Shown: positions 4,639 to 63,909 of the stretch, one piece after another
How positions within the stretch are numbered: the stretch's first letter is position 1
How the letters are laid out: each line of letters opens with the position of its first letter
NCBI GenBank assembly: GCA_963662175.1
Contig: OY759224.1
Span: forward strand, 23,197,489-23,261,488
Direction: 5' to 3'
DNA length: 64,000 nucleotides
Source of the DNA: Aradus depressus
Lineage: Eukaryota > Arthropoda > Insecta > Hemiptera > Aradidae
Made by a program: the position numbers and the translations under genes
The notes under the pieces: model-generated
What the model saw: only the letters and a program-made list of their open reading frames with translations
What the model was told of the DNA's origin: nothing
Database searches by the model: none

Positions 4639-4694
4639 GTAAATTTGGGCATTCAGGCGGTCAGACCATAATTCCCAACGGAAACGAAGGCGAT
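4639..4694 (+). CDS. Putative microexon, module 1, 56-nt type
   Basis: A 56-nt stretch between an acceptor (ttaatgttcacag) and a donor (gtaagt). It enters in phase 1 and leaves in phase 0, encoding a split Gly then KFGHSGGQTIIPNGNEGD. The exons at 39455 and 63854 have the same length, phases and donor. The donor flank gtaagtNNtggtttatttt is shared, and the upstream tattaggataaattaatgttcacag-like flank is shared with 63854. Splice-site identity across three copies is the main evidence; the protein itself is the least conserved of the three. The product is unknown. It would be followed by the 36-nt exon at 12958. Confidence 0.7.
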
Positions 4695-4724
4695 GTAAGT
4701 TGTGGTTTATTTTCAGTATTTATT

Positions 4725-4800
4725 TTATCATTACTTCATTTATCATTACTTATTTTATCATTACTTGTTTTATCATTAATTATTTTATCATTACTATTGA
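4725..4800. repeat. Short tandem repeat (ttatcattactta-like) in intron
   Basis: Five or so copies of a tttatcattactta-like unit directly after the donor at 4695. The same unit follows the paralogous donor at 63910 (63930-64000). This supports duplication of intron sequence along with the exon. Confidence 0.7.
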
Positions 4801-4909
4801 AGTCCAATTCTCAAGATAGTTTTTCATTTTTATAATTATGAGTAACGCATTCATTCATTACAGAACTCTCATTCGAAATACTAAGAATTTTGGCGAAGCT
4901 AATAAAGTG

Positions 4910-6600
4910 AAAAAAACTTTCACTCTTCTGTATTATAAATTATAATTTATAGGATCATATCATAAAAACAAGCAATTGGAAATGTAATTAGGAATTATTT
5001 TGACCAAGCTAAAAACTTATAATACAGAAGAGTGAAGGATTGTTTATAGAGCAGAACGTTCATATCATAAGAAGAAGCAATTGGAAATGTAATTAGGAAT
5101 ATTTTTGATCAAGCTAATAACTTATATTACAGAAGAGTGAAGGCTTGTTAATAGAACAGATGGTTCATACCATAAAAAGAAGTAATAGGAAGTGTAATTA
5201 GGAATATTTTTGACCAAGCTAATAACTTATATTACAGAAGAGTGAAGGCTTGTTTATAGAGCAGAAGGTTCATATCATAAAAAGAAGCAATAGGAAATGT
5301 AATTAGGAATATATTTCACCAAGCTAATAACTTATATTACAGAAGAGTGAAGGCTTGTTTATAGAGCAGAAAGATCATATCATAAAAAGAAGCAATAGGA
5401 AATGTAATTAGGAATATATTTCACCAAGCTAATAACTTATATTACAGAAGAGTGAAGGCTTGTTTATAGAGCAGAAAGATCATATCATAAAAAGAAGCAA
5501 TAGGAAATGTAATTAGGAATATATTTCACCAAGCTAATAACTTATATTACAGAAGAGTGAAGGCTTGTTTATAGAGCAGAAAGATCATATCATAAAAAGA
5601 AGCAATAGGAAATGTAATTAGGAATATATTTCACCAAGCTAATAACTTATATTACAGAAGAGTGAAGGCTTGTTTATAGAGCAGAAAGATCATATCATAA
5701 AAAGAAGCAATAGGAAATGTAATTAGGAATATATTTCACCAAGCTAATAACTTATATTACAGAAGAGTGAAGGCTTGTTTATAGAGCAGAAAGATCATAT
5801 CATAAAAAGAAGCAATAGGAAATGTAATTAGGAATATATTTCACCAAGCTAATAACTTATATTACAGAAGAGTGAAGGCTTGTTTATAGAGCAGAAAGAT
5901 CATATCATAAAAAGAAGCAATAGGAAATGTAATTAGGAATATATTTCACCAAGCTAATAACTTATATTACAGAAGAGTGAAGGCTTGTTTATAGAGCAGA
6001 AAGATCATATCATAAAAACAAGCAATAGGAAATGTAATTAGGAATATTATTGACCAACCTAATAATTTATATTACAGAAGAGTGAAGGCTTGTTTATTGA
6101 GCAGAAGGCTCATATCATAAAAAGAAGCAATAGGAGATGTAATTAGGAATATTTTTGACCAAGCTAAAAACTTATATTACAGAAGAGTGAAGGCTTGTTT
6201 ATAGAGCAGAAGGCTCATATAATAAAAAGAAGCAATAGGAAATGTAATTAGGAATATTTTTGACCAAGCTAAAAACTTATATTACAGAAGAGTGAAGGCT
6301 TGTTTATAGAGCAGAAGGCTCATATAATAAAAAGAAGCAATAGAAAATGTAATTAGGAATATTTTTGACCAAGCTAAAAACTTATATTACAGAAGAGTGA
6401 AGGCTTGTTTATAGAGCAGAAGGCTCATATCATAAAATGAAGCAATTGGAAATGTAATTAGGAATATGTTTGACCAAGCTAAAAACTTATATTACAGAAG
6501 AGTGAAGGCTTGTTTATTGAGCAGAAGGGTAACACCATAAAAACAAGCAATAGGAAATATAATTAGGAATATTTTTGACCAAGCTAATAACTTATAATAC
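4910..6600. repeat. 105-bp satellite array, left part
   Basis: About 16 copies of a 105-bp unit (tgttta positions 5461, 5566, 5671) with the landmarks gaagcaataggaaatgtaat and cttatattacagaagagtga. The middle copies (about 5280-6000) are almost identical; the edges are more diverged. At 4915-4937 a fragment of the unit is in inverted orientation (ctttcactcttctgtatt), so the array starts with a flipped piece. It ends at 6600 in cttataatac, where the gypsy element begins, and resumes at 10864. Confidence 0.95.
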
Positions 6601-7130
6601 CTCCCCCAGGCGCCTCTTGAACTGCCGCAGCCAATTTGCATGAACCACCATTCGCCGCCGCCTCCGACGAGGATCTTGTATCCTGTATGTAACGTCCGAC
6701 AACTTCTTCGTTATGATGTAGGGCCCGCTCCAAGGCCTGTGCAGTTTGGCGCTCCTGTTGCGACCGACGACAGGTGACCACAACCAGACCTCATCACCCT
6801 CCTGCAGGCGGCTCTCCTTGCAGCCACGGTCGTAGTAGTCCTTCTGCCTGAGCTGATGCTTCCCTTGTACTTGCCGTAGGCGGTCATAGGCGGCCTCCAT
6901 CTGCTCAGACCTACGAAGGACATACTCGTGCACCGGAGCTGCATCTTCTTCCCTACCATACATCATGTCGAGGGGCAGACTGACCTCTCTCCCGAATAAC
7001 GCGTAGTAAGGCGTAAGCTGCGTTGTCTCGTGACGACTCGACCGATACGCCAGCATAACGAGAGGGAGCTGCTGATCCCAGTCGTCCTGATGATCGTTGC
7101 AGAAATGGCATAGCATGTTGCCCAGGGTGC
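6601..7130 (-). pseudogene. pol: gypsy integrase C-terminal part
   Basis: Continuation of the integrase in a different frame: NSTLGNML, then [20 protein letters not shown] and [16 protein letters not shown], the usual C-terminal half of the gypsy integrase core. An SH3-like tail follows (EGDEVWLWSP, LHRPWSGPYIITKKLSDVTY). The frame runs to 6592, but the last codons read into satellite, so the 3' end is truncated at 6600. Confidence 0.85.
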
Positions 7131-9145
7131 TATTAGGCCGTCCGATTCCGGGTGGTATGAGCTGGTGCGTGTTTTATTAATATTCAGTCTCCTCATAAGG
7201 TCCGCAAAGAGTTGAGATTCAAATTGTCGGCCTTGGTCAGTATGAAGCTCGTATGGGGCGCCGTACCTTGCGATGAACTCTTTCAAGAGAGTGTCCGCTA
7301 TGGTTTCGGCCTCGATATTCACCACTGGGTAAGCCTCTACCCACTTAGTAAAGTAGTCGGCCACCACCACTACATATCGGTTACCACCTTGGGTCCGAGG
7401 TAGAGGCCCAAGGATGTCCATGGCGACCCGTTGGAAGGGGAAGCCTGCCGCTACTCGCTGCATCGGAGCTCTCGTCTTCGTCCCCTTCCTAGCCCCGCAA
7501 CTCTCGCAACTCTTTATCCATTCTTCAACGTCCCGTTGATGCCCCGACCAGTAGAAGCGATCTCGTACCTTCTGCAGGGTCCTGGTGATTCCCAAATGTG
7601 CCCCTCCTGCAGCGCTGTCGTGCAGATTTCCAAAAATTTCAGCAATCAAACTTCTCGGCACCACAAACTGATATCTTGGAGGCTTCCCTTCCTCTTCCCA
7701 TCTTCGGTGTATCAACCCATCTCGTAGTTCCAACCTACTCCATTGGGCCCAAAGACTGAAAAGCTTGGGACTTTTTCCCCGCACCTCTGAGAATGCTGGT
7801 CTTGCCCCCTCCACCAGCCAATCGAAAACGGCCAATAGCTGTGGATCCTCCCTTTGTGCGATGGCCAGTTCGTCAGATGATCTGATGGCACCAACAAGAA
7901 TTCCTTCACCTTCCCCAACCGATAGACAATCTTCTTCCTGCCCTCCCTTTACCACTTCCACTCCTTCTTTTTCCTCGGACTCGTCCTTTTCCTTTCCGCA
8001 TTGGCCGCACGAACGAGAAAGTCCATCCGCATTGCCATGTGCTTTTCCCGGCCGATGAACTATATTGAAATTATATGGAGCTAGAAGCTCAAGCCACCTG
8101 GCTACCTGACCTTCTGGGTCTTTGAAGGACTGCAACCACTTCAGGGAACTGTGATCAGTTCTAACAGTGAATATCGTACTGTAAAGATAGAAGCGGAAGT
8201 GGCGAACTGCAAAGATGAGGGCCAGCATCTCTTTTCTAGTAGTGCAGTAGCGCCTTTCTACTTTGGTCAACGCCCTACTGGCATAGCTGATCACTCTCTC
8301 CTGCCCCTCCTGCACCTGACTGAGTACGGCCCCCAGTCCCATATCGCTGGCATCAGTATCCAAAGTGAAGGTACCGTCACCCTTAGGCAACGCCAAGACT
8401 GGTGCTGAGGTCAATGCGATCTTAAGGCGCTCAAATCGCTCCTGCAACTCAGGTCCAAATATAAACTTGGCACTCTTTTCAGTGGCCCTGTAAAGGGGTG
8501 CAGCTATATCCGCGAATCCTCTGAGGAAACGCCTATAGTAGGCAGCAAACCCTAAGAACGATCTTAAGGCTCGTACGCGGTCGGGAGTGGGCCACTCGAC
8601 TACTGCCTTAATTTTATCTGGGTCCGTCGCAATGCCTTCAGCAGACACAAGATGTCCGAGATAAGTAATATGATCGCGCAACAGCTGGCATTTCTTTGGT
8701 CTTAGCTTAAGCCTGGCCTGACGAATCCTCTCGAAAATTTCTCTTAGCCGTTCCAGATGCTGCTCCACAGTTCCACTCCACACGACTATGTCATCCAGGT
8801 AAACCATTGAGGTCTTCCACTTCAAACCACTCAACACCGTGTCCATCAATCTCTGAAAGGTGCTGGGCGCGTTGCAGAGACCGAAGGGAAGCACTTTGAA
8901 TTGATACAGCCCCTCACAGGTGATGAAGGCTGTATTTTCTTTGTCTTGGGTTTCCACCTCTACCTGCCAGTAACCTGAAGCTAAATCCAGGGAGGAGAAA
9001 TACTTCGCTCCGGCGAGGTTATCTAAAATATCGTCGATCCTCGGCAAAGGATACGCATCTTTTTTCGTCACCTGGTTAAGCCGACGATAATCAACGCAGA
9101 AGCGTACACTTCCATCTTTCTTCCGGACAAGTACAATGGTTCGCC
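7125..9145 (-). pseudogene. pol: gypsy reverse transcriptase, RNase H and integrase
   Basis: The RT core has [42 protein letters not shown] and the catalytic YLDDIVVW. RNase H follows with [17 protein letters not shown] and [11 protein letters not shown]. The integrase zinc-binding HHCC region ([15 protein letters not shown] ... CESCGARK) is then followed by core acidic residues in [10 protein letters not shown] and [10 protein letters not shown]. The frame breaks just after HPESDGL near 7135, where the third catalytic acid (a conserved Glu) should be; the next frame resumes downstream of it. A short deletion therefore removed an essential residue and shifted the frame. Confidence 0.9.
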
Positions 9146-10236
9146 CATGGTGACTGTGAGGGCTCTATGACATTCTGGTCCAGCATTTCCGACACCAGTT
9201 TCTCTACTGTTTGACGTCGCTGTGCAGGGATCCGACGAAGCGGTTGTTTGATGGGCGTTGTGTTATCAGTGGCGATTCGGTGCTTCACCAAACCAGTTCG
9301 TCCGATGTCGGTAGGCCCAGTCGAGTATATGTCCTTGAAGTCATCTAGCAACCGAGTGAGCTCCTCCTTTTGGGCTGAGCTGATAGAGGCGGTTCTCAGG
9401 TCGAATAACCTCTGAATTTCTCCTCTGCCAACTTCGTCCGCGGTTACTGATGCCACAGTTTGGCAGAACTCCTCTACCAGCCCAAGGTTCGTTCTGGCAA
9501 AAATGGTCCTCGGTTCAGGCCCAGGATTCATAAGGCGAACTATCATCACACCCTGGTGAACAACGGCAGCACTTCGAGCAACGCACACCCCCATTTTCTC
9601 TCTGGCTTCCCACTTTGACTCAAAAATAACTTCGGTCCCATCCTCGGCACTAACATAGACTGACCCAAGAACTTCATGCCTTCCTGGCACGATGACATTC
9701 TCTACGAGCACAGCTGACAACTGCTGGATACACGGCAGCACATCCTGAGACACGAGTTGGGATACACCTGTTAATATCCTTAGCGTGCCTTCACCCACAC
9801 CCAACTCGAGACAAGCCTGGTTCATTTCAAGGAAATCAATCCCTAACAAAACATCGCACCAGAGATCTCCTATGACGCAAGAGTGAGTTCGCTCCTCAGA
9901 CCCGATGGTAACCGCTACCTTTGCTACTCTACTCGTCCCGATGCGCCCGCCACTTGCGTTCCTCAGGCTCCCGACGTATGGTGCCTGTGCCTGAATGCCA
10001 TTTTCCTGGGCAAATCGTGCACTGAGGAGCGTAAGACTTCGGCCTGAGTCCACCAACGCCTTAGTAGGCACCCCATTCACTTTGATCATGACGAAATTTC
10101 TTGAAGACCTATCTCCTTTTACACTGGGGACCAATTTCGGTCCGGCCAACGCGTGGTCCGCATCGCTGACCGACTTTAGTTTCCCTGCAACATCTTTCAT
10201 TGACTTTTGATGTGTCCCTTTTGGTTGCAGGCCCAA
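9120..10236 (-). pseudogene. pol: gypsy protease and start of reverse transcriptase
   Basis: The frame starts next to the gag knuckle. The aspartic protease active site reads ALVDSGRSLTLLSA (the D-S/T-G motif), with a downstream hydrophobic VLLGIDFL flap-side motif typical of retroviral-type proteases. The start of RT follows (KHRIATDNTTPIKQPLRRIP, then [16 protein letters not shown]). Around 9145 the frame shifts, and the RT continues in the next frame (VLVRKKDG and onward). It would process Gag-Pol if expressed; the frameshift uncouples it. Confidence 0.8.
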
Positions 10237-10690
10237 CAGAACACCTCACGGCGGCTTCGAACTTGCTGTGTCCCCTCCCCTAGCTGCTTTGCCAAGTTTG
10301 ACAAAACCCGGGTCAGTTCAACCAGCTGCGTACTTTGCTGATCCTGGCGAGCGCCTTGCTCCTTAACTATTTTTAGGAGAGACGATTCGCTCGGCATGAC
10401 ATCAGCAGTGATATCCCCCTGACTCTCGTGTCTGCTACTGATATTACTACTACTGTTCCCTCTTCGGAATGGCATTAAATATGTGTTGACTCTGGCCGGT
10501 CAGAGAGATAGCCAAAAATCGAACCATGGTATCTTCAGACCACTCATTGAGACGAGACACATTAATAAAATATTGTTCGTACTCACCCCAACTGCCACTC
10601 GAATACTCTTTGGGTAGTACCACTGACCGTATAACCTGTTCATCTCTGGCCACGCCAGAGTTTGTTTTCCCCAATCGTTTGGGCATGGTT
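10197..10690 (-). pseudogene. gag: gypsy gag remnant with zinc knuckle
   Basis: Two overlapping frames are needed: 10686-10450 (starts MPKRLGKTNSG, includes a WGEYEQYF patch) and 10475-10197, which ends in the zinc knuckle CWACNQKGHIKSQ followed by TGA (plus 10197-10199). The stop sits exactly where the fourth zinc ligand (C-x2-C-x4-H-x4-C) would be, so one change both removes the ligand and terminates the frame. The total length, about 160 residues, is short for a gypsy Gag, implying an internal deletion. Gag would form the particle and bind RNA; this copy cannot be functional. Confidence 0.7.
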
Positions 10691-12957: not shown

Positions 12958-12993
12958 GACTATTTGATTTGTTATTTTAAAGGCATTGGTGCT
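12958..12993 (+). CDS. Putative microexon, module 1, 36-nt type
   Basis: A 36-nt stretch between an acceptor (tgtattttcag) and a donor (gtaagt), phase 0 to 0, encoding DYLICYFKGIGA. Its paralogue at 41289-41324 has the same length and phases and encodes EFLLCYVKEANL, sharing the pattern [YF]-L-x-C-Y-x-K. Taken alone a 36-nt exon would be weak. The matching copy in the same module position between a 56-nt exon and a ~106-nt exon makes it credible. Confidence 0.65.
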
Positions 12994-32045: not shown

Positions 32046-32151
32046 GTGGCCGAAGAAAAGTTCAAGTGGGATTCATTTAAGAAAGACGTTCTTCTGTTGA
32101 TCGGAAATAGCATGGAGAACGTAAACCAAATGCAGGAAACTTGCAAAAAAG
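32046..32151 (+). CDS. Putative exon, module 1, ~106-nt type
   Basis: A 106-nt stretch between an acceptor (ttttctgatgtag) and a donor (gtatac), phase 0 to 1. It starts VAEEKFKWDSFKKDVLLLIG and ends NVNQMQETCKK plus one base. Its paralogue at 42092 starts MTDQEQFRWDVWMTKYSI and ends VKKMHETCKD; shared features are F-[KR]-W-D near the start and M-x-E-T-C-K at the end. The intron flanks also match (aaagagatttaattgtattt here, aaagatatttaattatattt there). It is separated by only 76 bp from the next exon, which continues the frame. This is the strongest single exon of the chain. Confidence 0.8.
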
Positions 32152-32582: not shown

Positions 32583-32612
32583 TAATTTCCGAAGAGGGCC
32601 CTAAAAACATAG
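32583..32612 (+). CDS. Possible 30-nt microexon
   Basis: A 30-nt stretch after a good acceptor (ttttgatttctacag) and before gtataa, phase 1 to 1, encoding a split Val, then ISEEGPKNI. It fits the reading frame between 32302 and 35324, but no paralogue was found in module 2, so support is only splice-site quality and phase. Confidence 0.3.
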
Positions 32613-33194
32613 GTATAAACCAAAGGTATAAATTACCTTACTGGATTCACAGGGAAAATGAATAGTATAGAATAAGAGAACAAATATTGGGTTTATTTAC
32701 TTAAACCTTCATTATAAATAAAATCAAAATATCAATATGAAACGAAAATCAAATTATATAGACTAAAAAAAAAGTCTTACAAACTAATTTCTACATCTAC
32801 TTTTAGTCTTTTTTCAAAAAATATTGTGGCCAAACTTTAATTCAATTTTATTTTTATGCTTATGGACATATAAATGTACCTTTGCGAATCTACTTCACTG
32901 TTATTTTCACTCCTACATTTTTCACTACACCTTAACCCTAAAAACATTTCTCTCTGTAGACTGTCCACTCCCACATCTCAACTTGACTGTTTCTCACTAT
33001 TAGAACAGCTGATCGTCGTCTTTTGTTTTCCATTCTTTGGTTGTTCACATTTTGTTTTAAAACAAAATGCGACTAGTCCATTTTTGTATATTTATTTATT
33101 AATTAAGTTACTCTACTCCTAACAGCTGTTTTTATACAAATAATAATAATGATTTTAAGTATAATACTTTAATTATCTTGATGTGTGTAATTTT
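32613..33194. other. AT-rich intronic stretch with a short palindrome
   Basis: No exon or mobile element recognised. A 22-bp perfect palindrome centred on the ttttaaaa at about 33058 is present. The 82-codon ORF at 32874 is hydrophobic and low in information; I do not call it. Confidence 0.45.
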
Positions 33195-35030: not shown

Positions 35031-35323
35031 TATATCGACACAAAATTTTACAAGTGGACTCTTCAACTTCATAACGCTGACAGTTATTTATCTTCAGCCA
35101 AATGAGAAGAAGTGGTTATATAATCAGTGTTTACATCAGCTAATATAATAACCAATTATAATATATATAATAAAATTGAGAGCGCTGTCATAGCCCTCCA
35201 GTCAATGGTAGCCCTATGGGGAAATTCCGTGCACCTCATATTGTTTTTTCTATTCTCACATATATTATTATAATAATAGAAGTTTTATATTAACACTTCA
35301 TTTTTATTTTTTTGTGAATACAG

Positions 35324-35407
35324 ACCAGGAGGAGATATCAACAATAGTTTTAGAAAAGGAGATTGCATATGCAACTCATTGCGCTTTAGAAAATGAAATC
35401 TCTCTAG
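35324..35407 (+). CDS. Putative exon, module 1, 84-nt phase 1-1 type
   Basis: An 84-nt stretch between an acceptor (tttttgtgaatacag) and a donor (gtaata), phase 1 to 1. It encodes a split Asp, then QEEISTIVLEKEIAYATHCA and LENEISL. It resembles the 75-nt exon at 32228 in phase, its helix-like character and a single Cys near the same place. It would be joined to the 56-nt exon at 39455 (split codon G+AG, Glu). An overlapping 69-codon plus ORF in another frame is not called. Confidence 0.7.
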
Positions 35408-39454: not shown

Positions 39455-39510
39455 AGAATGTTCTACCATTCGTAACTAACTGGGAAATTCCAAAAGAAAA
39501 AAATAAAAAT
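39455..39510 (+). CDS. Putative microexon, module 2, 56-nt type
   Basis: A 56-nt stretch between an acceptor (ttgttattctcag) and a donor (gtaagt), phase 1 to 0. It encodes a split Glu, then NVLPFVTNWEIPKEKNKN. Aligned without gaps with 63854 (EVQDFLWKYFTSKGRDDE), it shares Val at position 2, Phe at 5, an aromatic at 9, Lys at 13 and a charged end. The donor flank gtaagttttggtttattttt matches the other two copies. Confidence 0.7.
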
Positions 39511-41288: not shown

Positions 41289-41324
41289 GAATTTCTCCTC
41301 TGTTATGTGAAAGAGGCTAACCTT
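41289..41324 (+). CDS. Putative microexon, module 2, 36-nt type
   Basis: A 36-nt stretch between an acceptor (tatgaacatttcag) and a donor (gtaagt), phase 0 to 0, encoding EFLLCYVKEANL. It is paralogous to 12958-12993 (DYLICYFKGIGA). The alternative phases contain a stop (TAA), so phase 0, the one demanded by the neighbouring exons, is the only clean reading apart from short accidental ones. Confidence 0.65.
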
Positions 41325-42091: not shown

Positions 42092-42561
42092 ATGACAGAC
42101 CAAGAACAATTTAGATGGGATGTATGGATGACAAAGTATTCGATAGGTTAGGTTAGGTTTTATGACTCATGCCCGGGCTTTAACTACGAGGTCATATCGC
42201 CTACTACCAGAGCGCTCTTCCGTCACTCTGGTGGACATGAGCCCGACTCTACTGTGGGAGTCCTAAATTTTGCCTACCCTAAATTTTTATTCACCTAGGG
42301 CAGGGGTCTTTAACGAGTACCTGACATCGTACAGGCTCGGGACCATCGCTTAACGTCCCATCCGAAGGACGGCGTGCTTAAGTTTATTTTACCTCCCAGA
42401 TAAAATAAACTAAGGGCCTCGGTCGGGCTACGAACCCACAACCTTGAGCTCAGAAGTCAAGCACGCATACCACTGAGCTACCGGCGCCCTCTAAAAGTAT
42501 TCGATATTGTTACAATTTGATAGTTATCGGGTGAAAAAAATGCACGAGACCTGCAAAGATG
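42092..42561 (+). pseudogene. Module 2 third exon (~109 nt) disrupted by a SINE
   Basis: The acceptor (tgttctcaatcgtag) precedes MTDQEQFRWDVWMTKYSI, homologous to the 32046 exon. After base 42145 a minus-strand SINE intervenes, and coding resumes at 42507 to end VKKMHETCKD plus one base before gtaggc at 42562. Without the SINE and one 13-bp duplication the exon is 109 nt, phase 0 to 1, three bases longer than its paralogue. Read through, the SINE gives TAG at 42149. However, G42146|gttagg would be a usable donor giving a 55-nt exon that also ends in phase 1, so a shortened in-frame product is possible. Confidence 0.7.
42146..42493 (-). mobile_element. tRNA-derived SINE inserted in an exon, with 13-bp target duplication
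   Basis: Minus orientation: the tRNA-like head reads ctgagctaccggcgccctct at the right end, the body ttaacgtcccatccgaagga, and the tail at the left. The duplication aaagtattcgata is at 42133-42145 and 42494-42506, perfect over 13 bp. The 3' tail is a gttaggttaggtt run resembling the TTAGG telomere motif. The perfect duplication indicates a comparatively recent insertion. Confidence 0.92.
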
Positions 42562-44400: not shown

Positions 44401-44472
44401 TTGAAGATTTTGAGAAGAATTCCGCTGGAGAACGAGGTGCTAACATTATAAAATGCATGAGCAAAGTTACAG
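44401..44472 (+). CDS. Putative exon, module 2, 72-nt phase 1-1 type
   Basis: A 72-nt stretch between an acceptor (catatttttttttag) and a donor (gtaata), phase 1 to 1. It encodes a split Val, then EDFEKNSAGERGANIIKCMS and KVT. It is homologous to the identical exons at 50096 and 54926 (core G-A-N-I-[IV]) and to 32228. It follows the SINE-disrupted exon. Confidence 0.72.
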
Positions 44473-49430: not shown

Positions 49431-49507
49431 AACATTTCTCTCCTTTTAATTTCAAAGAGTGATCAGCTGTTAGTCAAAAAATAACTAAAATAAAACATAT
49501 ACAGATT

Positions 49508-50095: not shown

Positions 50096-50170
50096 ATTCT
50101 ACAGAAGATCCCGCTGCAGAAGGAGGCGCTAACATTGTAACATCCATAACAACAGAGCATTCGAAGGATG
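50096..50170 (+). CDS. Putative exon, module 2, 75-nt phase 1-1 type (copy A)
   Basis: After a long T tract and gaaag, 75 nt up to the donor gtaaga, phase 1 to 1. It encodes a split Asp, then STEDPAAEGGANIVTSITTE and HSKD. It is paralogous to 44401 (shared G-A-N-I-[IV]) and identical to 54926-55000. The Cys seen in related exons is absent. The phase-symmetric duplication keeps the frame. The acceptor boundary (gaaag|att) is inferred from phase and from alignment with 44401. Confidence 0.65.
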
Positions 50171-50745
50171 GTAAGAATTTATATGAAGAAAAAAATTATT
50201 AAATGGAAGTTCATCCCATATACAGTCAAAATCACTGTTTTAGTGAGTCAGATGAGGCCAATAGTTACAATCAAAATCACTGTTTTAGAGAGTCAGATGA
50301 GTCCTATAGTTACAGTCAAAATCACTGTTTTAGTGAGTCAGATGAGTCCTTTAGTAGGAGTGTCTACAATCCATGTAAAGCATTTTTGTATTATTTGTAT
50401 TGGATTAACCAGAACATATACTGTCAAAATCACTGTTTTAGTGAGTCAGATGAGTCCTTTAGTAGGAGTGTCTGCTTTCCATGTAAAGCATTTTTGTCGT
50501 ACTCTAATTGGATTAACAAGAACATATACAGTCAAAATCATTTTTTTAGTGTGTCAGATGAGTCCTTTAATCGAAGTGTCTGTTTTCCATGTGAAGCAAT
50601 TTTGTCGTATATGTATTGGATTAACAAGAACATATACAGTCAATATCACTGTTTCAGTTAGTCAGATGAGTTCTATAGTAGGAGTGTCTGCTTTCCATGT
50701 AAACCATTTTTGTCGTATTCTAATTGGATTAACAAGAACATATAC

Positions 50746-53821: not shown

Positions 53822-54260
53822 TAACTCGCTCTTTTGATAGCTTACCGCAGAACATTTTTCTCCTTTTAATTTCAAGTGTGATCAGCTGTTAGTCAAAAAA
53901 TAACTCCATCTCATCCGCATTAGATATGTCCTCATCGGTGTAACGTGTCCTGTGTTTCGGTCATACGTTTTCAAACCATTCACTCGTAATTGATTGGTCA
54001 ACAGCTTCTGACGCATCTGAACACATTCCATTAACACTACTGTGTCGAGATCTGAAACGTTGAATACTGGAAGCGATGCACTCGAGATATTCCTTTTCAA
54101 AAGCACACCAAATTCTTCAGCCTTTGCCTGAAGCATGGGCCCACTCACGGGTACAGTGTTTGCGCGTCGTTTTTAAAACCAATCCAGCAAAGCATATTCA
54201 ATGTCAGTGTGATTAAATAAACGAACCTGTTTTGTCTTTTCGCACTTATTAAATTTTGAG
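53822..54260 (-). pseudogene. Tigger transposase fragment, copy 2
   Basis: Nearly identical to 48990-49430; it carries two additional bases (gtgtcgagatctg against gtgtcgatctg), which moves the frame change. Same motifs: SGPMLQAKAEE, NADEMELFFD, GKLSKERVT. Confidence 0.8.
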
Positions 54261-54337
54261 AACATTTCTCTCCTTTTAATTTCAAAGAGTGATCAGCTGT
54301 TAGTCAAAAAATAACTAAAATAAAACATATACAGATT

Positions 54338-54925
54338 ACGTACTAAAAAAAAAAATTGGGTTAACAAAATTGAGAACCATCAATAAAATGCTTCTATTTG
54401 AGAAAGCAAACCGAACTGAATGAAAATGACATGTGGGATCCAAAACTGTTAGGTTCCCGTTGCATTTGTGGATGTGGAACGCTTTTTTTCATCGTATAAA
54501 AAATTTTTAAGTGACCGCAGACATAACTTTAAGGAAGAAAATAGAAAAATACTTGTTTCTTAACCTGAATTATTCACAATTGCAATAAAACTTTATATAT
54601 TTTTTACTAGTTTTTTTATAACATTTGTATGATTACAATAATTATTACCTGCATATAGATGTACAATGTAGTTAATATTTTAAAAAATAAATAAATCGTG
54701 TCTGTTAAATAGAATTTTTTCATTTTTTTCAATTTATTCTGCCTAAAAACGCATATTTCGACATGTTTTACAGCATATTTATACATATATTAATATATTA
54801 TACTGCATACTACTTGCACATTTCATCATTTTAAACTGCATATTTTTAGTGCATAAAAATCCGGTCTCTACTTATTACTAAGCAATTTTAATTGTAGCAC
54901 AATTTTTTTTTTTTTTTTTTGAAAG
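54338..54925. repeat. Triplicated intron segment, unit 3
   Basis: Duplicate of 49508-50095, ending at the acceptor of the exon at 54926. Confidence 0.9.
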
Positions 54926-55000
54926 ATTCTACAGAAGATCCCGCTGCAGAAGGAGGCGCTAACATTGTAACATCCATAACAACAGAGCATTCGAAGGATG
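54926..55000 (+). CDS. Putative exon, module 2, 75-nt phase 1-1 type (copy B)
   Basis: Base-identical copy of 50096-50170, with the same acceptor context and donor gtaaga. It would lead into the 56-nt exon at 63854 (split codon G+AT, Asp). If both copies are used, the protein has two identical 25-residue segments in a row. Confidence 0.65.
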
Positions 55001-55764
55001 GTAAGAATTTATATGAAGAAAAAAATTATTAAATGGAAGTTCATCCCATATACAGTCAAAATCACTGTTTTAGTGAGTCAGATGAGGCCAATAATAGGAG
55101 TGTCTACTATCCATGTAGAGCAGTTTTGTCGAATTCTAATTGGATTAACAAGATCATATACAGTCAAAATCACTGTTTTAGTGAGTCAGATGAGGCCAAT
55201 AGTAGGAGTGTCTACTATCCATGTAGAGCAGTTTTGTCGAATTCTAATTGGATTAACAAGATCATATACAGTCAAAATCACTGTTTTAGTGAGTCAGATG
55301 AGGCCAATAGTAGGAGTGTCTACTATCCATGTTAAGCAGTTTTGTCGAATTCTAATTGGATTAACAAGATCATATACAGTCAAAATCACTGTTTTAGTGA
55401 GTCAGATGAGGCCAATAGTAGGAGTGTCTACTATCCATGTAAAGCAGTTTTGTCGTATTCTAATTGGATTAAAAAGATCATATACAGTCAAAATCACTGT
55501 TTTAGTGAGTCAGATGAGGCCAATAGTAGGAGTGACTACTATCCATGTGAAGCATTTTTGTCGTATTTGTATTGGATTTACAAGAACATATACTGTCAAA
55601 ATCACTGTGTCAGTGAGTCAGATGAGTTCTTTAGTAGGAGTGTCTGCTTTCCATGTAAAGCATTTTTGTCGTATTTGTATTGGATTAACAAGAATATTTA
55701 CTGTCAAAATCACTGTTTTAGTGAGTCAGATGAGTCCTTTAGTAGGAGTGTCTGCTTTTCATGT

Positions 55765-56080
55765 AACTAGCTCTTTTGATAGCTTACCGCAGAACATTTT
55801 TCTCCTTTTAATTTCAAAGTGTGATCAGCTGTTAGTCAAAAAATAACTCCATCTCATCCGCATTAAAAATGTCCTCATCGGTGTAACGTGTCCTGTGTTT
55901 CGGTCATACGTTTTCAACCCATTCACTCGTAATTGATAGGTCAACAGCTTCTGACGCATCTGAACACATTCCATTAACACTACTGTGTCGAGATCTGAAA
56001 CGTTGAATACTGGAAGCGATGCACTCCAGATATTCCTTTTCAGAAGCACACCAAATTCTTCAGCCTTTGCCTGAAGATGA
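55765..56080 (-). pseudogene. Short Tigger transposase fragment in satellite, copy 3
   Basis: Runs from GKLSKERVT through ADEMELFFD to LQAKAEEFGVLLKRNI, and is cut at LQ, where satellite (gagaaggagtgtctg) begins. This cut version, with tgcactccag in place of tgcactcgag, is the form repeated in copies 4-7. Confidence 0.75.
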
Positions 56081-57844
56081 GAAGGAGTGTCTGTTTTCCC
56101 TATAAAACATTTTTGTCGTATTTGTATTAGATTAAGAGGAACATATACAGTCAAAATCACTGTTTTAGTGAGTCAGATGAGACCAATAATAGGAGTGTCT
56201 ACTATCCATGTAGAGCAGTTTTGTCGAATTCTAATTGAATTAACAAGATCATATTTAGTCAAAATCACTGTTTTAGTGAGTCAGATGAGGCCAATAGTAG
56301 GAGTGTCTACTATCCATGTAAAGCAGTTTTGTCGAATTCTAATTGGATTAACAAGATCATATACAGTCAAAATCACTGTTTTAGTGAGTCAGATGAGGCC
56401 AATAGTAGGAGTGTCTACTATCCATGTAAAGCAGTTTTGTCGTATTCTAATTGGATTAAAAAGATCATATACAGTCAAAATCACTGTTTTAGTGAGTCAG
56501 ATGAGGCCAATAGTAGGAGTGACTACTATCCATGTGAAGCATTTTTGTCGTATTTGTATTGGATTTACAAGAACATATACAGTCAAAATCACTGTTTTAG
56601 TGAGTCAGATAATGCCAATAGTAGGAGTGTCTACTATCCATGTAAAGCAGTTTTGTCGTATTCTAATTGGATTAAAAAGATCATATACAGTCAAAATCAC
56701 TGTTTTAGTGAGTCAGATGAGGCCAATAGTAGGAGTGACTACTATCCATGTGAAGCATTTTTGTCGTATTTGTATTGGATTTACAAGAACATATCCTGTC
56801 AAAATCACTGTGTCAGTGAGTCAGATGAGTTCTTTAGTAGGAGTGTCTGCTTTCCATGTAAAGCATTTTTGTCGTATTTGTATTGGATTAACAAGAACAT
56901 ATACTGTCAAAATCACTGTTTTAGTGAGTCAGATGAGGCCAATAGTAGGAGTGACTACTATCCATGTGAAGCATTTTTGTCGTATTTGTATCGGATTTAC
57001 AAGAACATATACTGTCAAAATCACTGTGTCAGTGAGTCAGATGAGTTCTTTAGTAGGAGTGTCTGCTTTCCATGTAAAGCATTTTTGTCGTATTTGTATT
57101 GGATTAACAAGAATATTTACTGTCAAAATCACTGTTTTAGTGAGTCAGATGAGGCCAATAGTAGGAGTGACTACTTACTATCCATGTGAAGCATTTTTGT
57201 CGTATTCTAATTAGATTAACAAGACGTATTCTAATTAGATTAACAGTCAAAATCACTGTTTTAGTGAGTCAGATAAGGCCAATAGTAGGAGTGACTACTA
57301 TCCATGTGAAGCATTTTTGTCGTATTTGTATTGGATTTACAAGAACATATACTGTCAAAATCACTGTGTCAGTGAGTCAGATGAGTTCTTTAGTAGGAGC
57401 GTCTGCTTTCCATGTAAAGCATTTTTGTCGTATTTGTATTGGATTAACAAGAATATTTACTGACAAAATCACTGTTTTAGTGAGTCAGATGAGGCCAATA
57501 GTAGGAGTGACTACTATCCATGTAAAGCAGTTTTGTCGTATTCTAATTGGATTAAAAAGATCATATACAGTCAAAATCACTGTTTTAGTGAGTCAGATAA
57601 GGCCAATAGTAGGAGTGACTACTATCCATGTGAAGCATTTTTGTCGTATTTGTATTGGATTTACAAGAATATTTACTGACAAAATCACTGTTTTAGTGAG
57701 TCAGATGAGGCCAATAGTAGGAGTGACTACTATCCATGTAAAGCAGTTTTGTCGTATTCTAATTGGATTAAAAAGATCATATACAGTCAAAATCACTGTT
57801 TTAGTGAGTCAGATGAGTCCTTTAGTAGGAGTGTCTGCTTTCAT

Positions 57845-58160
57845 GTAACTCGCTCTTTTGATAGCTTACCGCAGAACATTTTTCTCCTTTTAATTTCAAA
57901 GTGTGATCAGCTGTTAGTCAAAAAATAACTCCATCTCATCCGCATTAAAAATGTCCTCATCGGTGTAACGTGTCCTGTGTTTCGGTCATACGTTTTCAAC
58001 CCATTCACTCGTAATTGATAGGTCAACAGCTTCTGACGCATCTGAACACATTCCATTAACACTACTGTGTCGAGATCTGAAACGTTGAATACTGGAAGCG
58101 ATGCACTCCAGATATTCCTTTTCAGAAGCACACCAAATTCTTCAGCCTTTGCCTGAAGAT
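57845..58160 (-). pseudogene. Short Tigger transposase fragment, copy 4
   Basis: Same as copy 3, 2,082 bp downstream. It starts a second higher-order unit. Confidence 0.75.
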
Positions 58161-60034
58161 GAGAAGGAGTGTCTGTTTTCCCTATAAAACATTTTTGTCG
58201 TATTTGTATTAGATTAAGAGGAACATATACAGTCAAAATCACTGTTTTAGTGAGTCAGATGAGACCAATAATAGGAGTGTCTACTATCCATGTAGAGCAG
58301 TTTTGTCGAATTCTAATTGATTTAACAAGATCATATACAGTCAAAATCACTGTTTTAGTGAGTCAGATGAGGCCAATAGTAGGAGTGTCTACTATCCATG
58401 TAAAGCAGTTTTGTCGTATTCTAATTGGATTAAAAAGATCATATACAGTCAAAATCACTGTTTTAGTGAGTCAGATGAGGCCAATAGTAGGAGTGACTAC
58501 TATCCATGTGAAGCATTTTTGTCGTATTTGTATTGGATTTACAAGAACATATACAGTCAAAATCACTGTTTTAGTGAGTCAGATAATGCCAATAGTAGGA
58601 GTGTCTACTATCCATGTAAAGCAGTTTTGTCGTATTCTAATTGGATTAAAAAGATCATATAAAGTCAAAATCACTGTTTTAGTGAGTCAGATGAGGCCAA
58701 TAGTAGGAGTGACTACTATCCATGTGAAGCATTTTTGTCGTATTTGTATTGGATTTACAAGAACATATACTGTCAAAATCACTGTGTCAGTGAGTCAGAT
58801 GAGTTATTTAGTAGGAGTGTCAGCTTTCCATGTAAAGCATTTTTGTCGTATTTGTATTGGATTAACAAGAACATATACTGTCAAAATCACTGTTTTAGTG
58901 AGTCAGATGAGGCCAATAGTAGGAGTGACTACTATCCATGTGAAGCATTTTTGTCGTATTTGTATTGGATTTACAAGAACATATCCTGTCAAAATCACTG
59001 TGTCAGTGAGTCAGATGAGTTCTTTAGTAGGAGTGTCTGCTTTCCATGTAAAGCATTTTTGTCGTATTTGTATTGGATTAACAAGAACATATACTGTCAA
59101 AATCACTGTTTTAGTGAGTCAGATGAGGCCAATAGTAGGAGTGACTACTATCCATGTGAAGCATTTTTGTCGTATTTGTATCGGATTTACAAGAACATAT
59201 ACTGTCAAAATCACTGTGTCAGTGAGTCAGATGAGTTCTTTAGTAGGAGTGTCTGCTTTCCATGTAAAGCATTTTTGTCGTATTTGTATTGGATTAACAA
59301 GAATATTTACTGTCAAAATCACTGTTTTAGTGAGTCAGATGAGGCCAATAGTAGGAGTGACTACTTACTATCCATGTGAAGCATTTTTGTCGTATTCTAA
59401 TTAGATTAACAAGACGTATTCTAATTAGATTAACAGTCAAAATCACTGTTTTAGTGAGTCAGATAAGGCCAATAGTAGGAGTGACTACTATCCATGTGAA
59501 GCATTTTTGTCGTATTTGTATTGGATTTACAAGAACATATACTGTCAAAATCACTGTGTCAGTGAGTCAGATGAGTTCTTTAGTAGGAGCGTCTGCTTTC
59601 CATGTAAAGCATTTTTGTCGTATTTGTATTGGATTAACAAGAATATTTACTGACAAAATCACTGTTTTAGTGAGTCAGATGAGGCCAATAGTAGGAGTGA
59701 CTACTATCCATGTAAAGCAGTTTTGTCGTATTCTAATTGGATTAAAAAGATCATATACAGTCAAAATCACTGTTTTAGTGAGTCAGATAAGGCCAATAGT
59801 AGGAGTGACTACTATCCATGTGAAGCATTTTTGTCGTATTTGTATTGGATTTACAAGAATATTTACTGACAAAATCACTGTTTTAGTGAGTCAGATGAGG
59901 CCAATAGTAGGAGTGACTACTATCCATGTAAAGCAGTTTTGTCGTATTCTAATTGGATTAAAAAGATCATATACAGTCAAAATCACTGTTTTAGTGAGTC
60001 AGATGAGTCCTTTAGTAGGAGTGTCTGCTTTCAT

Positions 60035-60350
60035 GTAACTCGCTCTTTTGATAGCTTACCGCAGAACATTTTTCTCCTTTTAATTTCAAAGTGTGATCAG
60101 CTGTTAGTCAAAAAATAACTCCATCTCATCCGCATTAAAAATGTCCTCATCGGTGTAACGTGTCCTGTGTTTCGGTCATACGTTTTCAACCCATTCACTC
60201 GTAATTGATAGGTCAACAGCTTCTGACGCATCTGAACACATTCCATTAACACTACTGTGTCGAGATCTGAAACGTTGAATACTGGAAGCGATGCACTCCA
60301 GATATTCCTTTTCAGAAGCACACCAAATTCTTCAGCCTTTGCCTGAAGAT
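60035..60350 (-). pseudogene. Short Tigger transposase fragment, copy 5
   Basis: Same as copy 4, 2,190 bp downstream. The difference between the two spacings is exactly one 108-bp unit. Confidence 0.75.
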
Positions 60351-61684
60351 GAGAAGGAGTGTCTGTTTTCCCTATAAAACATTTTTGTCGTATTTGTATT
60401 AGATTAAGAGGAACATATACAGTCAAAATCACTGTTTTAGTGAGTCAGATGAGACCAATAATAGGAGTGTCTACTATCCATGTAGAGCAGTTTTGTCGAA
60501 TTCTAATTGAATTAACAAGATCATATTTAGTCAAAATCACTGTTTTAGTGAGTCAGATGAGGCCAATAGTAGGAGTGTCTACTATCCATGTAAAGCAGTT
60601 TTGTCGAATTCTAATTGGATTAACAAGATCATATACAGTCAAAATCACTGTTTTAGTGAGTCAGATGAGGCCAATAGTAGGAGTGTCTACTATCCATGTA
60701 AAGCAGTTTGGTCGTATTCTAATTGGATTAAAAAGATCATATACAGTCAAAATCACTGTTTTAGTGAGTCAGATGAGGCCAATAGTAGGAGTGACTACTA
60801 TCCATGTGAAGCATTTTTGTCGTATTTGTATTGGATTTACAAGAACATATACAGTCAAAATCACTGTTTTAGTGAGTCAGATAATGCCAATAGTAGGAGT
60901 GTCTACTATCCATGTAAAGCAGTTTTGTCGTATTCTAATTGGATTAAAAAGATCATATACAGTCAAAATCACTGTTTTAGTGAGTCAGATGAGGCCAATA
61001 GTAGGAGTGACTACTATCCATGTGAAGCATTTTTGTCGTATTTGTATCGGATTTACAAGAACATATACTGTCAAAATCACTGTGTCAGTGAGTCAGATGA
61101 GTTCTTTAGTAGGAGTGTCTGCTTTCCATGTAAAGCATTTTTGTCGTATTTGTATTGGATTAACAAGAATATTTACTGTCAAAATCACTGTTTTAGTGAG
61201 TCAGATGAGGCCAATAGTAGGAGTGACTACTTACTATCCATGTGAAGCATTTTTGTCGTATTCTAATTAGATTAACAAGACGTATTCTAATTAGATTAAC
61301 AGTCAAAATCACTGTTTTAGTGAGTCAGATAAGGCCAATAGTAGGAGTGACTACTATCCATGTGAAGCATTTTTGTCGTATTTGTATTGGATTTACAAGA
61401 ACATATACTGTCAAAATCACTGTGTCAGTGAGTCAGATGAGTTCTTTAGTAGGAGCGTCTGCTTTCCATGTAAAGCATTTTTGTCGTATTTGTATTGGAT
61501 TAACAAGAATATTTACTGACAAAATCACTGTTTTAGTGAGTCAGATGAGGCCAATAGTAGGAGTGACTACTATCCATGTAAAGCAGTTTTGTCGTATTCT
61601 AATTGGATTAAAAAGATCATATACAGTCAAAATCACTGTTTTAGTGAGTCAGATGAGTCCTTTAGTAGGAGTGTCTGCTTTCAT

Positions 61685-62000
61685 GTAACTCGCTCTTTTG
61701 ATAGCTTACCGCAGAACATTTTTCTCCTTTTAATTTCAAAGTGTGATCAGCTGTTAGTCAAAAAATAACTCCATCTCATCCGCATTAAAAATGTCCTCAT
61801 CGGTGTAACGTGTCCTGTGTTTCGGTCATACGTTTTCAACCCATTCACTCGTAATTGATAGGTCAACAGCTTCTGACGCATCTGAACACATTCCATTAAC
61901 ACTACTGTGTCGAGATCTGAAACGTTGAATACTGGAAGCGATGCACTCCAGATATTCCTTTTCAGAAGCACACCAAATTCTTCAGCCTTTGCCTGAAGAT
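61685..62000 (-). pseudogene. Short Tigger transposase fragment, copy 6
   Basis: Same as copy 5, 1,650 bp downstream: five 108-bp units fewer than the preceding spacing. Confidence 0.75.
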
Positions 62001-62454
62001 GAGAAGGAGTGTCTGTTTTCCCTATAAAACATTTTTGTCGTATTTGTATTAGATTAAGAGGAACATATACAGTCAAAATCACTGTTTTAGTGAGTCAGAT
62101 GAGGCCAATAATAGGAGTGTCTACAATCCATGTAAAGCAGTTTTGTCGTATTCTAATTGGATTAACAAGATCATATACAGTCAAAATCACTGTTTTAGTG
62201 AGTCAGATGAGGCCAATAGTAGGAGTGTCTACTATCCATGTAAAGCAGTTTTGTCGAATTCTAATTGGATTTACAAGAACATATACTGTCAAAATCACTG
62301 TGTCAGTGAGTCAGATGAGTTCTTTAGTAGGAGTGTCTGCTTTCCATGTAAAGCATTTTTGTCGTATTTGTATTGGATTAACAAGAATATTTACTGTCAA
62401 AATCACTGTTTTAGTGAGTCAGATGAGTCCTTTAGTAGGAGTGTCTGCTTTCAT

Positions 62455-62770
62455 GTAACTCGCTCTTTTGATAGCTTACCGCAGAACATTTTTCTCCTTT
62501 TAATTTCAAAGTGTGATCAGCTGTTAGTCAAAAAATAACTCCATCTCATCCGCATTAAAAATGTCCTCATCGGTGTAACGTGTCCTGTGTTTCGGTCATA
62601 CGTTTTCAACCCATTCACTCGTAATTGATAGGTCAACAGCTTCTGACGCATCTGAACACATTCCATTAACACTACTGTGTCGAGATCTGCAACGTTGAAT
62701 ACTGGAAGCGATGCACTCCAGATATTCCTTTTCAGAAGCACACCAAATTCTTCAGCCTTTGCCTGAAGAT
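62455..62770 (-). pseudogene. Short Tigger transposase fragment, copy 7
   Basis: Same as copy 6, 770 bp downstream, with minor base differences (gatctgcaacg in place of gatctgaaacg). It is the last fragment before the satellite ends. Confidence 0.75.
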
Positions 62771-63038
62771 GAGAAGGAGTGTCTGTTTTCCCTATAAAAC
62801 ATTTTTTTCGTATTTGTATTAGATTAAGAGGAACATATACAGTCAAAATCACTGTTTTAGTGAGTCAGATGAGGCCAATAATAGGAGTGTCTACTATCCA
62901 TGTAAAGCAGTTTTGTGGTATTCTAATTGGATTAACAAGATCATATACAGTCAAAATCACTGTTTTAGTGAGTCAGATGAGGCCAATAGTAGGAGAGTCT
63001 ACTATCCATGTAAAGCAGTTTTGTCGTATATGCCATGT

Positions 63039-63320
63039 TTATCACTTTGAGTATGTAATTATGATGCAATTTATTTGTATAAATAATAGTCGGGTCAATC
63101 CCTGTTTCAGTTTCTATGAAAGAAGTTCGCGAATAACTAGGCAGCCTGAATAGTTTTTTAATTAAATATCCAAATAGTTTCTCTATTTCTATGTGACATT
63201 CTCCTCTCCAAATTTGGACCCCAAAGTAGTCTATAAGGAGTGGCGTAACTAACGCGGGTGCAGTGGCGTGGGGCCCCCGGGCACAAGAGGCCCCCAATTG
63301 AGCTTTTTTTTTTTTTTGCT
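63039..63320 (-). pseudogene. Non-LTR C-terminal fragment and a possible hAT end
   Basis: The minus strand (63245-63040) reads LLIDYFGVQIWRGECHIEIE, KLFRLPSYSRTSFIETETGI and LHHNYILKVINM, which resembles the C-terminal region after RT in non-LTR elements. Next to it, 63238-63300 (gagtggcgtaactaacgcgg, gggcccccgggcacaagagg) looks like one end of a hAT-type element, but no partner end is seen. Confidence 0.5.
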
Positions 63321-63521
63321 TTTATGTTGCGAAAAAACAGCAATTACTAATTATGTAATAATTTTATTTTCAAGAGAAACACGGATTACATATTACAGTA
63401 AGAACCTTCAGGTTTTTGGCAGCGACTTCGTCCTGATCGAGTATTTCACTCTCTCGGCTAGTTTCCCGGATGTGTGTTCCGCAATTTTATTTATTGCCCC
63501 TTATTTTATTTTATCTGGGAA
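63321..63521. other. Unassigned sequence
   Basis: AT-rich with a partial second SINE-like start (ttattttatctggga, about 63505-63520). No gene is supported. Confidence 0.4.
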
Positions 63522-63815
63522 AGGGCTCTCAAGATCGTGGGTTCGAAACCCGACCTAGGCCCTTAGTTTATTTTATCTGGGAGGTAAAATACACTTAAGC
63601 ACGCCGTCCTTCGGATGGGACGTTAAGCGATGGTCCCGAGCCTGTGCGATGTCAGGCACTCGTTAAAGACCTCTGCCATAGGCGATTAAAAATTTAGGGT
63701 AGGCAAAATTTAGGACTCCCACAGTGGAGTAGGGGCTCAGGTCCACGAGAGGGGCGAAAGAGCGCTCTGGTAGTCGATATGACCTCGTAGTTAAAGCCCG
63801 GGCATGAATCATGAT
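63522..63815 (+). mobile_element. tRNA-derived SINE, 5'-truncated
   Basis: Starts at ctcaagatcgtgggttcgaa (B box intact), then the full body: cgtccttcggatgggacg, gcgatggtcccgagcctg, agcgctctggtag and cccgggcatgaatcatgata. It ends 38 bp before the 56-nt exon, like the SINE at 4271-4600, and the SINE-to-exon spacer is similar in both (taactaNatattta...aaattaatgttcacag). Confidence 0.85.
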
Positions 63816-63853
63816 AACTAAATATTTACATTAGGACAAATTAATGTTCACAG

Positions 63854-63909
63854 ATGAAGTTCAGGATTTCCTTTGGAAGTACTTTACGTCCAAAGGAAGG
63901 GATGACGAG
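63854..63909 (+). CDS. Putative microexon, module 3, 56-nt type
   Basis: A 56-nt stretch between an acceptor (ttaatgttcacag) and a donor (gtaagt), phase 1 to 0. It encodes a split Asp, then EVQDFLWKYFTSKGRDDE. Paralogous to 4639 and 39455 in length, phases, acceptor and donor contexts. It implies that at least a third module continues past the right edge of the window. Confidence 0.72.

What the first reader, a model, noticed from the sequence alone, without database searches (positions are those of the whole stretch)
4639..63909. A large modular microexon gene hidden among repeats
Twelve short plus-strand exons form repeating modules of 56, 36, ~106 and 72-84 nt with fixed phases (1-0, 0-0, 0-1, 1-1). 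All of them join in frame from 4639 to 63909. Paralogous exons share lengths, splice sites and intron flanks. The gene has no recognisable domain and would extend beyond both window edges, with introns of up to 19 kb filled by transposons and satellites. Most gene finders would discard exons this small.
Basis: partly seen in the sequence, partly recalled or inferred. Interest (0 to 1): 0.88.

Follow-up and report, generated by a model that had tools for sequence, protein, structure and literature searches.

The report
Tandem insect odorant-binding protein genes
The tiny exons are real, but they most likely belong to neighbouring insect odorant-binding protein genes, a well-known family whose genes are often cut into small exons by long introns, and not to one giant unknown gene.

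Summary
Read in order, intact exons A1+B1+C1+D1 (4639-32302) match Pfam PF01395 PBP_GOBP, insect odorant-binding proteins (OBPs), at 24.7 bits, above the curated cut-off of 22; D2+A2+B2 match an earlier, overlapping part of the profile at 14.9 bits, below it; six of six residue shuffles match nothing. Cysteine spacing fits an OBP lacking C2 and C5 ('Minus-C'). The next exon reads into a stop at 32663 with AATAAA 54 nt on, so two or three tandem OBP genes are the best reading. The 12-exon chain is not all in frame: B2 to D3 fails; the exon expected there is broken by a SINE-like insert with a 13-bp target-site duplication, so the second gene is probably damaged. Small exons, long introns and tandem clusters are published for aphid, whitefly and locust OBPs. 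Worth keeping: A1 and A3 share 85% of intron flanks but 52% of the exon.

The parts
4639..4694 (+). A1, 56-nt exon (phase 1-0), OBP gene 1; the PF01395 match starts inside it
   Evidence: AG/GTAAGT, open; match covers residues 11-86 of A1+B1+C1+D1
12958..12993 (+). B1, 36-nt exon (0-0), gene 1; carries the Cys read as C3
   Evidence: B1-B2 shuffle p 0.0002
32046..32151 (+). C1, 106-nt exon (0-1), gene 1; ends with the Cys read as C4
   Evidence: upstream intron like that of C2
32228..32302 (+). D1, 75-nt exon (1-1), gene 1; carries the Cys read as C6; the match ends here at profile 112 of 113
32583..32665 (+). X, probable terminal exon of gene 1, stop TAG at 32663-32665; an internal 30-nt form (donor gtataa after 32612) is the alternative
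   Evidence: terminal-exon candidates of this kind are common (92 in 100-63000, plus strand), so likely, not proven
32717..32722 (+). AATAAA, polyadenylation-like signal
35324..35407 (+). D2, 84-nt exon (1-1), gene 2; carries the Cys read as C1 (helix 1)
   Evidence: with A2 and B2 matches profile 10-56 at 14.9 bits, below the cut-off
39455..39510 (+). A2, 56-nt exon (1-0), gene 2
41289..41324 (+). B2, 36-nt exon (0-0), gene 2; Cys read as C3
42092..42145 (+). C2a, first piece of an interrupted C-type exon of gene 2
   Evidence: C1-C2a shuffle p 0.0018
42146..42493 (-). SINE-like insert in the C2 exon, of the same repeat as next to A1 and A3; 13-bp target-site copies at 42133-42145 and 42494-42506
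   Evidence: 'SINE' and 'tRNA-like' are my reading, ARAGORN and Rfam reported nothing
42494..42561 (+). C2b, second piece of the interrupted C-type exon
   Evidence: C1-C2b shuffle p 0.0002
44401..44472 (+). D3, 72-nt exon (1-1; 44407 is another possible start), gene 2; Cys read as C6
   Evidence: D1-D3 shuffle p 0.022
50096..50170 (+). D4, exon-like relative of D3 inside the satellite block; no Cys
54926..55000 (+). D5, identical copy of D4
   Evidence: 321 of 321 bases identical
63854..63909 (+). A3, 56-nt exon (1-0), presumed OBP gene 3; the rest would lie beyond the window
   Evidence: no domain match of its own was possible (18 residues)

Best explanation
The window, probably from a hemipteran insect, holds part of a tandem cluster of odorant-binding protein genes, probably of the Minus-C kind, all on the plus strand. 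Gene 1 is exons A1-B1-C1-D1-X; its signal-peptide and helix-1 exons were not identified. Gene 2 is D2-A2-B2-C2-D3, with exon C2 broken by a SINE-like insert. A3 is what is visible of a presumed third copy. Mechanism, inferred from general knowledge of the family: each gene makes a small secreted all-helical carrier held by the C1-C3 and C4-C6 disulfides, which binds a small hydrophobic ligand. The modules arose by tandem gene duplication, and repeats stretched the introns. Shown here: exons, phases, the domain match of gene 1, the cysteine pattern, the broken exon. Inferred: splicing, secretion, ligand binding, gene borders.
For: PF01395 PBP_GOBP: A1+B1+C1+D1 24.7 bits, E 2.6e-5; with X 23.6 bits, E 5.7e-5; gathering score 22; profile 38-112 of 113. 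D2+A2+B2: 14.9 bits, E 0.029, profile 10-56. The two pieces match successive, overlapping parts of one profile in exon order, with the A and B exons in the overlap. Six of six residue shuffles match no family. Residues between cysteines: 31 (D2 to B2), 39 (B1 to C1), 19 (C1 to D1); with C2 and C5 absent this fits the OBP spacing as I recall it. Stop at 32663 and AATAAA at 32717, 34 residues after the last Cys. Published architecture agrees: Myzus persicae OBPs have five to nine exons, five of nine have seven, OBP3 has six exons averaging 71 nt and introns averaging 3.3 kb, OBP3/7/8 are in tandem; whitefly BtabBOBP1/6/8 share a scaffold and orientation with 6-7 exons each, and BtabBOBP6 lacks C2 and C5; locust OBP exons are 20-210 bp, introns 83 bp to 58 kb. 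Taxon: 14 of the 15 organism-named rows among 120 listed (of 2380) for the RT at 22956-24584 are Hemiptera.
Against: The gene-2 piece is below the gathering score, and an unrelated family (PRMT5_TIM) scores nearly as well on it: 12.9 bits, E 0.067. Shorter joins C1+D1, B1+C1 and A2+B2 give no OBP match. phmmer against solved structures found no OBP. NCBIfam gave nothing (a bacterial/archaeal library). First exons were not identified: strict scan of 32666-35323 gave none, the relaxed scan 10 weak candidates, one of them phase-compatible (32874-32955, donor gtagac). No helix-1 exon for gene 1 in 3286-4270; 11 candidates in 44500-63850 that I read as satellite or transposon frames. The gypsy search gave no consistent taxon. 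No transcript evidence.
Confidence: 0.88

Rival explanations
1. One transcript encodes several concatenated OBP domains: D1 is spliced, directly or through the 30-nt form of X, to D2 and onward.
For: D1, the 30-nt form of X and D2 are all phase 1-1, so the joint keeps frame; no convincing signal-peptide exon was found before D2. Double-domain OBPs, one domain Minus-C, exist in Nasonia, and two dimer OBP genes in Drosophila.
Against: X reads to a stop and AATAAA follows; a weak phase-compatible first-exon candidate lies at 32874-32955; B2 to D3 is out of frame and C2 is broken; the multi-domain OBPs in the passages I saw have two domains.
Confidence: 0.1
2. The cluster is mostly dead: gene 2 and D4/D5 are remnants and at most gene 1 works.
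For: Insert in exon C2 with a 13-bp target-site duplication; D4 and D5 lack the C6 cysteine and sit in a duplicated satellite block; no terminal exon resembling X after D3 and no clear first exon for gene 2.
Against: Neither C2 piece has a stop in its matching frame; the splice sites of the other exons are intact; the A1/A3 exon changed more than its introns, which plain decay does not give.
Confidence: 0.35
3. A bicycle or megacycle gene, the aphid family of rapidly evolving salivary proteins with many microexons.
For: Microexons, repeated modules, length, probable hemipteran source, one pair with exon faster than intron; the Melanaphis megacycle has 118 exons over about 100 kb with internal repeats.
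Against: Almost all internal bicycle exons share one phase; here 9 of 12 start in phase 1 and 3 in phase 0. The printed classifier gives -16.3 or -37.3, by phase convention, for this partial gene without the first/last exon terms. The OBP match.
Confidence: 0.02
4. Chance open intervals between AG and GT in AT-rich DNA.
For: 194 plus-strand and 108 minus-strand 1-1 candidates of 60-99 nt pass a loose splice filter, so single D-type exons alone prove little.
Against: No equally good A-like or B-like interval in 60 resamplings; paralogous exons in the same order twice; a curated domain match over four exons.
Confidence: 0.02

Closest known systems
Insect odorant-binding proteins, PBP/GOBP family (Pfam PF01395), Minus-C class, e.g. 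whitefly BtabBOBP6
   Same: Domain match of gene 1, cysteines read as C1, C3, C4, C6 with C2 and C5 absent, small exons, tandem same-strand arrangement
   Different: Gene 1 spans at least 28 kb, longer than BtabBOBP6 (about 13 kb by the table); gene 2 is interrupted; sequence identity to any named OBP was not measured
Aphid OBP3/7/8 tandem cluster
   Same: OBP3 has six exons averaging 71 nt, OBP7 and OBP8 seven exons, kilobase introns, tandem arrangement
   Different: Orthology was not tested; the aphid genes in the passage are 2.85-18 kb
Nasonia double-domain Minus-C OBPs
   Same: Repeated OBP modules, loss of cysteines, alignment legend marks splice sites between codons or after the first base
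   Different: Here a stop and AATAAA lie between the first two modules; another Nasonia figure legend also has a colour for phase 2, which is not seen here
Bicycle and megacycle genes of aphids
   Same: Many microexons, internal repeats, fast evolution
   Different: Mixed exon phases and an OBP domain; see the membership test
Schistosome micro-exon genes (MEGs)
   Same: Small exons
   Different: MEG exons are short, symmetric, 6-36 bp; A and C exons here are asymmetric and longer

Membership tests
Odorant-binding proteins (PBP_GOBP) | Match to Pfam PF01395 at the curated cut-off | tested here: met
   Gene 1: 24.7 bits, and 23.6 with X, against 22. The gene-2 piece alone: 14.9 bits, not met. 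A3 not testable on its own
Odorant-binding proteins (PBP_GOBP), classic class | Six conserved cysteines | tested here: not met
   Cysteines at four of the six positions over the two pieces; C2 and C5 positions are not Cys (spacing recalled). Not a classic OBP
Minus-C OBP class | C2-C5 pair lost, C1-C3 and C4-C6 kept | tested here: inconclusive
   Pattern fits, but no single gene shows all four: C1 and C3 in gene 2, C3, C4, C6 in gene 1. Class of BtabBOBP6
Odorant-binding proteins (PBP_GOBP) | N-terminal signal peptide | tested here: inconclusive
   Strict scan: none in 32666-35323 or 3286-4600. Relaxed scan: weak candidates, e.g. 32874-32955 before gene 2 and 3323-3416 before gene 1. Gene 1 may start upstream of the window
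Odorant-binding proteins (PBP_GOBP) | Small single-domain protein ending soon after C6 | tested here: inconclusive
   X gives a stop 34 residues after C6, then AATAAA, but terminal-exon candidates are common (92)
Odorant-binding proteins (PBP_GOBP) | Binds small hydrophobic ligands; expressed in sensory or other secretory tissue | not testable with these tools
   No expression or binding data
Bicycle/megacycle genes | Almost all internal exons in one phase (gene-structure classifier) | tested here: not met
   9 of 12 start in phase 1, 3 in phase 0; linear predictor -16.3 or -37.3, partial gene, no first/last exon terms (coefficients)
Bicycle/megacycle genes | Secretion signal, CYC motifs, saposin-like fold | not tested
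   No full-length protein; described
Schistosome MEGs | About 80% of the coding region in short symmetric exons of 6-36 bp | tested here: not met
   Lengths 30-106 nt, A (1-0) and C (0-1) asymmetric (definition from one passage)

The most novel reading that the evidence does not exclude
A single hemipteran transcript strings together three or more Minus-C OBP domains from microexons spread over about 60 kb or more, and the helix-2 exon (A) is replaced or hypermutated between copies while its introns stay alike, so that the ligand pocket is remodelled exon by exon.
Probability: 0.06. Interest if true: 0.45.

Novelty: new member of a known kind. Interest (0 to 1): 0.16.

Why it matters
It turns a supposed giant orphan gene into an ordinary OBP cluster, and shows that short-exon genes can look domain-less until their exons are read in order. 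The A1/A3 pair (introns alike, exon changed) is a small, testable case of exon-limited fast evolution in OBPs.

Tried and rejected
Bicycle/megacycle reading: pursued first because of the microexons, and because the RT search pointed to Hemiptera; dropped on exon phase, the classifier and the OBP match. Schistosome MEG reading: dropped on exon symmetry and size. Taxon from a second retroelement piece: 2099 candidates, none at E 0.001. Taxon from gypsy: 8 organism-named rows among 120 listed, namely one plant, two spider, one stick insect, one bark-beetle virus, one bacterial MAG, one psyllid and one ant record, so nothing consistent. Single exons against Pfam: six pieces (C1, D1, D2, D3, D5, C2b) gave no OBP match, only a weak PRMT5_TIM match for D2; A and B exons are too short for that tool. 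Solved structures: no OBP. Flank patterns: the A donor pattern gave 4 hits where shuffles give 2.4 on average, so it adds little; the B acceptor pattern hit only B2; the C upstream pattern hit C1 and C2 only, with 0 expected, but was made from those two. Rfam at gathering scores and ARAGORN: nothing in the window. NCBIfam: nothing. The window's own genome could not be searched: the tool did not answer in six tries, so modules outside the window are untested. Structure prediction was not run.
Full report
WHAT WAS CHECKED. The twelve exons were read from the window. All twelve are bounded by AG and GT and are open in the stated phase. I name them A (56 nt, 1-0), B (36 nt, 0-0), C (106 nt, 0-1), D (72-84 nt, 1-1) and X (32583). 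Of 12 exon pairs tested by residue shuffle five reach p 0.02 or less (B1-B2, C1-C2a, C1-C2b, D3-D4, D1-D3) and seven do not, among them the three A pairs and D1-D2. Loose D-type candidates are common (194 plus, 108 minus), so single D exons prove little on their own.

Ten of 11 junctions keep frame; B2 to D3 does not. The module order requires a C exon there. It is present at 42092-42561. The intron before it is like that before C1 (34 bases, 88%, E 2e-6). A repeat sits inside the exon, flanked by a 13-bp target-site duplication; the same repeat lies next to A1 and A3. I read it as a tRNA-derived SINE; ARAGORN and Rfam reported nothing. Neither piece of the exon has a stop in its matching frame. 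D4 and D5 are one exon-like sequence in two identical copies (321 of 321), related to D3, inside the 108-bp satellite block.

WHAT IT IS. Single exons match nothing relevant in Pfam (six pieces; A and B are too short to scan). Read together, A1+B1+C1+D1 match PF01395 PBP_GOBP with 24.7 bits, E 2.6e-5 (with X 23.6 bits, E 5.7e-5; cut-off 22), profile positions 38-112 of 113. D2+A2+B2 match positions 10-56 with 14.9 bits, E 0.029, below the cut-off; an unrelated family, PRMT5_TIM, scores 12.9 bits on the same piece. The two matches overlap at 38-56, where both pieces have their A and B exons, so order and register agree. Six of six shuffles match nothing; the shorter joins C1+D1, B1+C1 and A2+B2 give no OBP match either. 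The order is thus helix-1 exon (D2), A, B, C, D1 or D3, last exon X. Residues between cysteines are 31 (D2 to B2), 39 (B1 to C1) and 19 (C1 to D1). With the classic OBP spacing (recalled, not from a call) these are C1, C3, C4 and C6, and C2 and C5, which pair with each other (recalled), are missing. BtabBOBP6 of whitefly lacks the same two and falls in the Minus-C class (passages and section 12 of PMC7380034).

ONE GENE OR SEVERAL. D1 reaches the end of the OBP profile. X, the next exon, reads to TAG at 32663-32665, and AATAAA follows at 32717. D2 then starts a new domain. Separate tandem genes are the best reading. It is not proven: terminal-exon candidates are common (92 in 100-63000 of the plus strand); the strict scan found no signal-peptide exon before D2, the relaxed one only weak candidates, one phase-compatible at 32874-32955; and two-domain OBPs exist in Nasonia and Drosophila (passages of PMC3428353 and PMC2258175). 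No terminal exon like X was found after D3, and no convincing helix-1 exon for genes 1 or 3 in the stretches scanned.

KNOWN ARCHITECTURE. Aphids: Myzus persicae OBPs have five to nine exons, five of nine have seven; OBP3 has six exons averaging 71 nt over 17 kb; OBP3/7/8 are in tandem (passages of PMC7380018). The gall aphid Schlechtendalia has OBPs with three to eight exons, all with a PBP_GOBP domain (passages of PMC10142413). Whitefly: three OBPs on one scaffold, same orientation, 6-7 exons each. Locust: exons 20-210 bp, introns 83 bp to 58 kb, genes 10-80 kb (one passage of PMC6062766). The Nasonia alignment legend marks splice sites between codons or after the first base, the two phases seen here; another legend there also has a colour for phase 2. 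Gene 1 (28 kb visible) is longer than the aphid genes in the passage and within the locust range.

ORGANISM. The reverse transcriptase frame at 22956-24584 has 15 organism-named rows among 120 listed of 2380: 14 Hemiptera (Ranatra 4, Uroleucon 7, Melanaphis, Sipha, Cinara) and one Pantoea record, which I take for contamination. The gypsy search gave mixed names and a third search none. Hemiptera is likely; nothing finer is claimed.

EXON FASTER THAN INTRON. A1 and A3 are both 56 nt, with the end of the same repeat 29 and 32 nt upstream. Aligned without gaps the exon is identical at 29 of 56 sites and the flanks at 75 of 88 (Fisher p 2e-5); the repeat part at 253 of 291. Estimated dN is 0.92 and dS 0.35 on 18 codons, against 0.165 for the flanks. 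D3-D4 goes the same way (43 of 66 against 81 of 97, with 9 and 20 gap columns, p 0.009); A1-A2 weakly (p 0.04); A2-A3 (0.13) and B1-B2 (0.67) not significantly. D5 is identical to D4 and adds nothing. This hints at diversifying selection, or at segment switching of the kind called ASSET in snake venom genes (abstract of PMC2711939); the Nasonia OBP abstract also speaks of positive selection. One strong pair is not a trend.

RIVALS. Bicycle/megacycle genes were the first guess. The abstract, sections 11-12 and passages of PMC9168663 say that almost all internal exons share one phase; here 9 of 12 start in phase 1 and 3 in phase 0, and the printed classifier gives -16.3 or -37.3 by phase convention, for a partial gene and without the first/last exon terms. 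Of PMC13041983 (bicycle proteins have saposin-like folds) I read the abstract, part 1 of 7 and passages. Schistosome MEGs have short symmetric exons of 6-36 bp (one passage of PMC5825161), unlike these.

VERDICT. Correctly spotted exons of a known gene family, misread as a single orphan gene. Interest low; the damaged second copy and the A1/A3 contrast are minor points.

Noticed in passing
4270-4778 and 63528-63993: Paralogous blocks (repeat, intron, exon, intron) in which introns and repeat are 85-90% alike but the exon only 52%; possible exon-limited fast evolution.
   Followed up: partly
42133-42506: SINE-like repeat inserted in an OBP exon with a 13-bp target-site duplication; its end next to the left copy reads GGTTAGGTTAGG, like the TTAGG insect telomere repeat (recalled).
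   Followed up: partly
44578-63029: Large 108-bp satellite block that also carries a duplicated reading frame (45579 and 50943; no Pfam match for the first; I take it for a transposon ORF1) and two identical exon-like copies (50096, 54926).
   Followed up: no
1-3285: 87-bp tandem array, about 38 copies, open in one frame for 561 codons, the period being a multiple of three; probably satellite, not coding.
   Followed up: no
6592-10245 (minus strand): Gypsy-type element with protease, RT, RNase H and integrase matches over three overlapping frames, at 47-51% GC in an AT-rich window.
   Followed up: partly
40759-40891 (minus strand): Open frame seen in the exon scan that does not look like satellite; not identified.
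   Followed up: no
3323-3416: Hydrophobic ATG frame ending in phase 1 before gtaagt, upstream of A1; a weak candidate for a first exon, not tested further.
   Followed up: no
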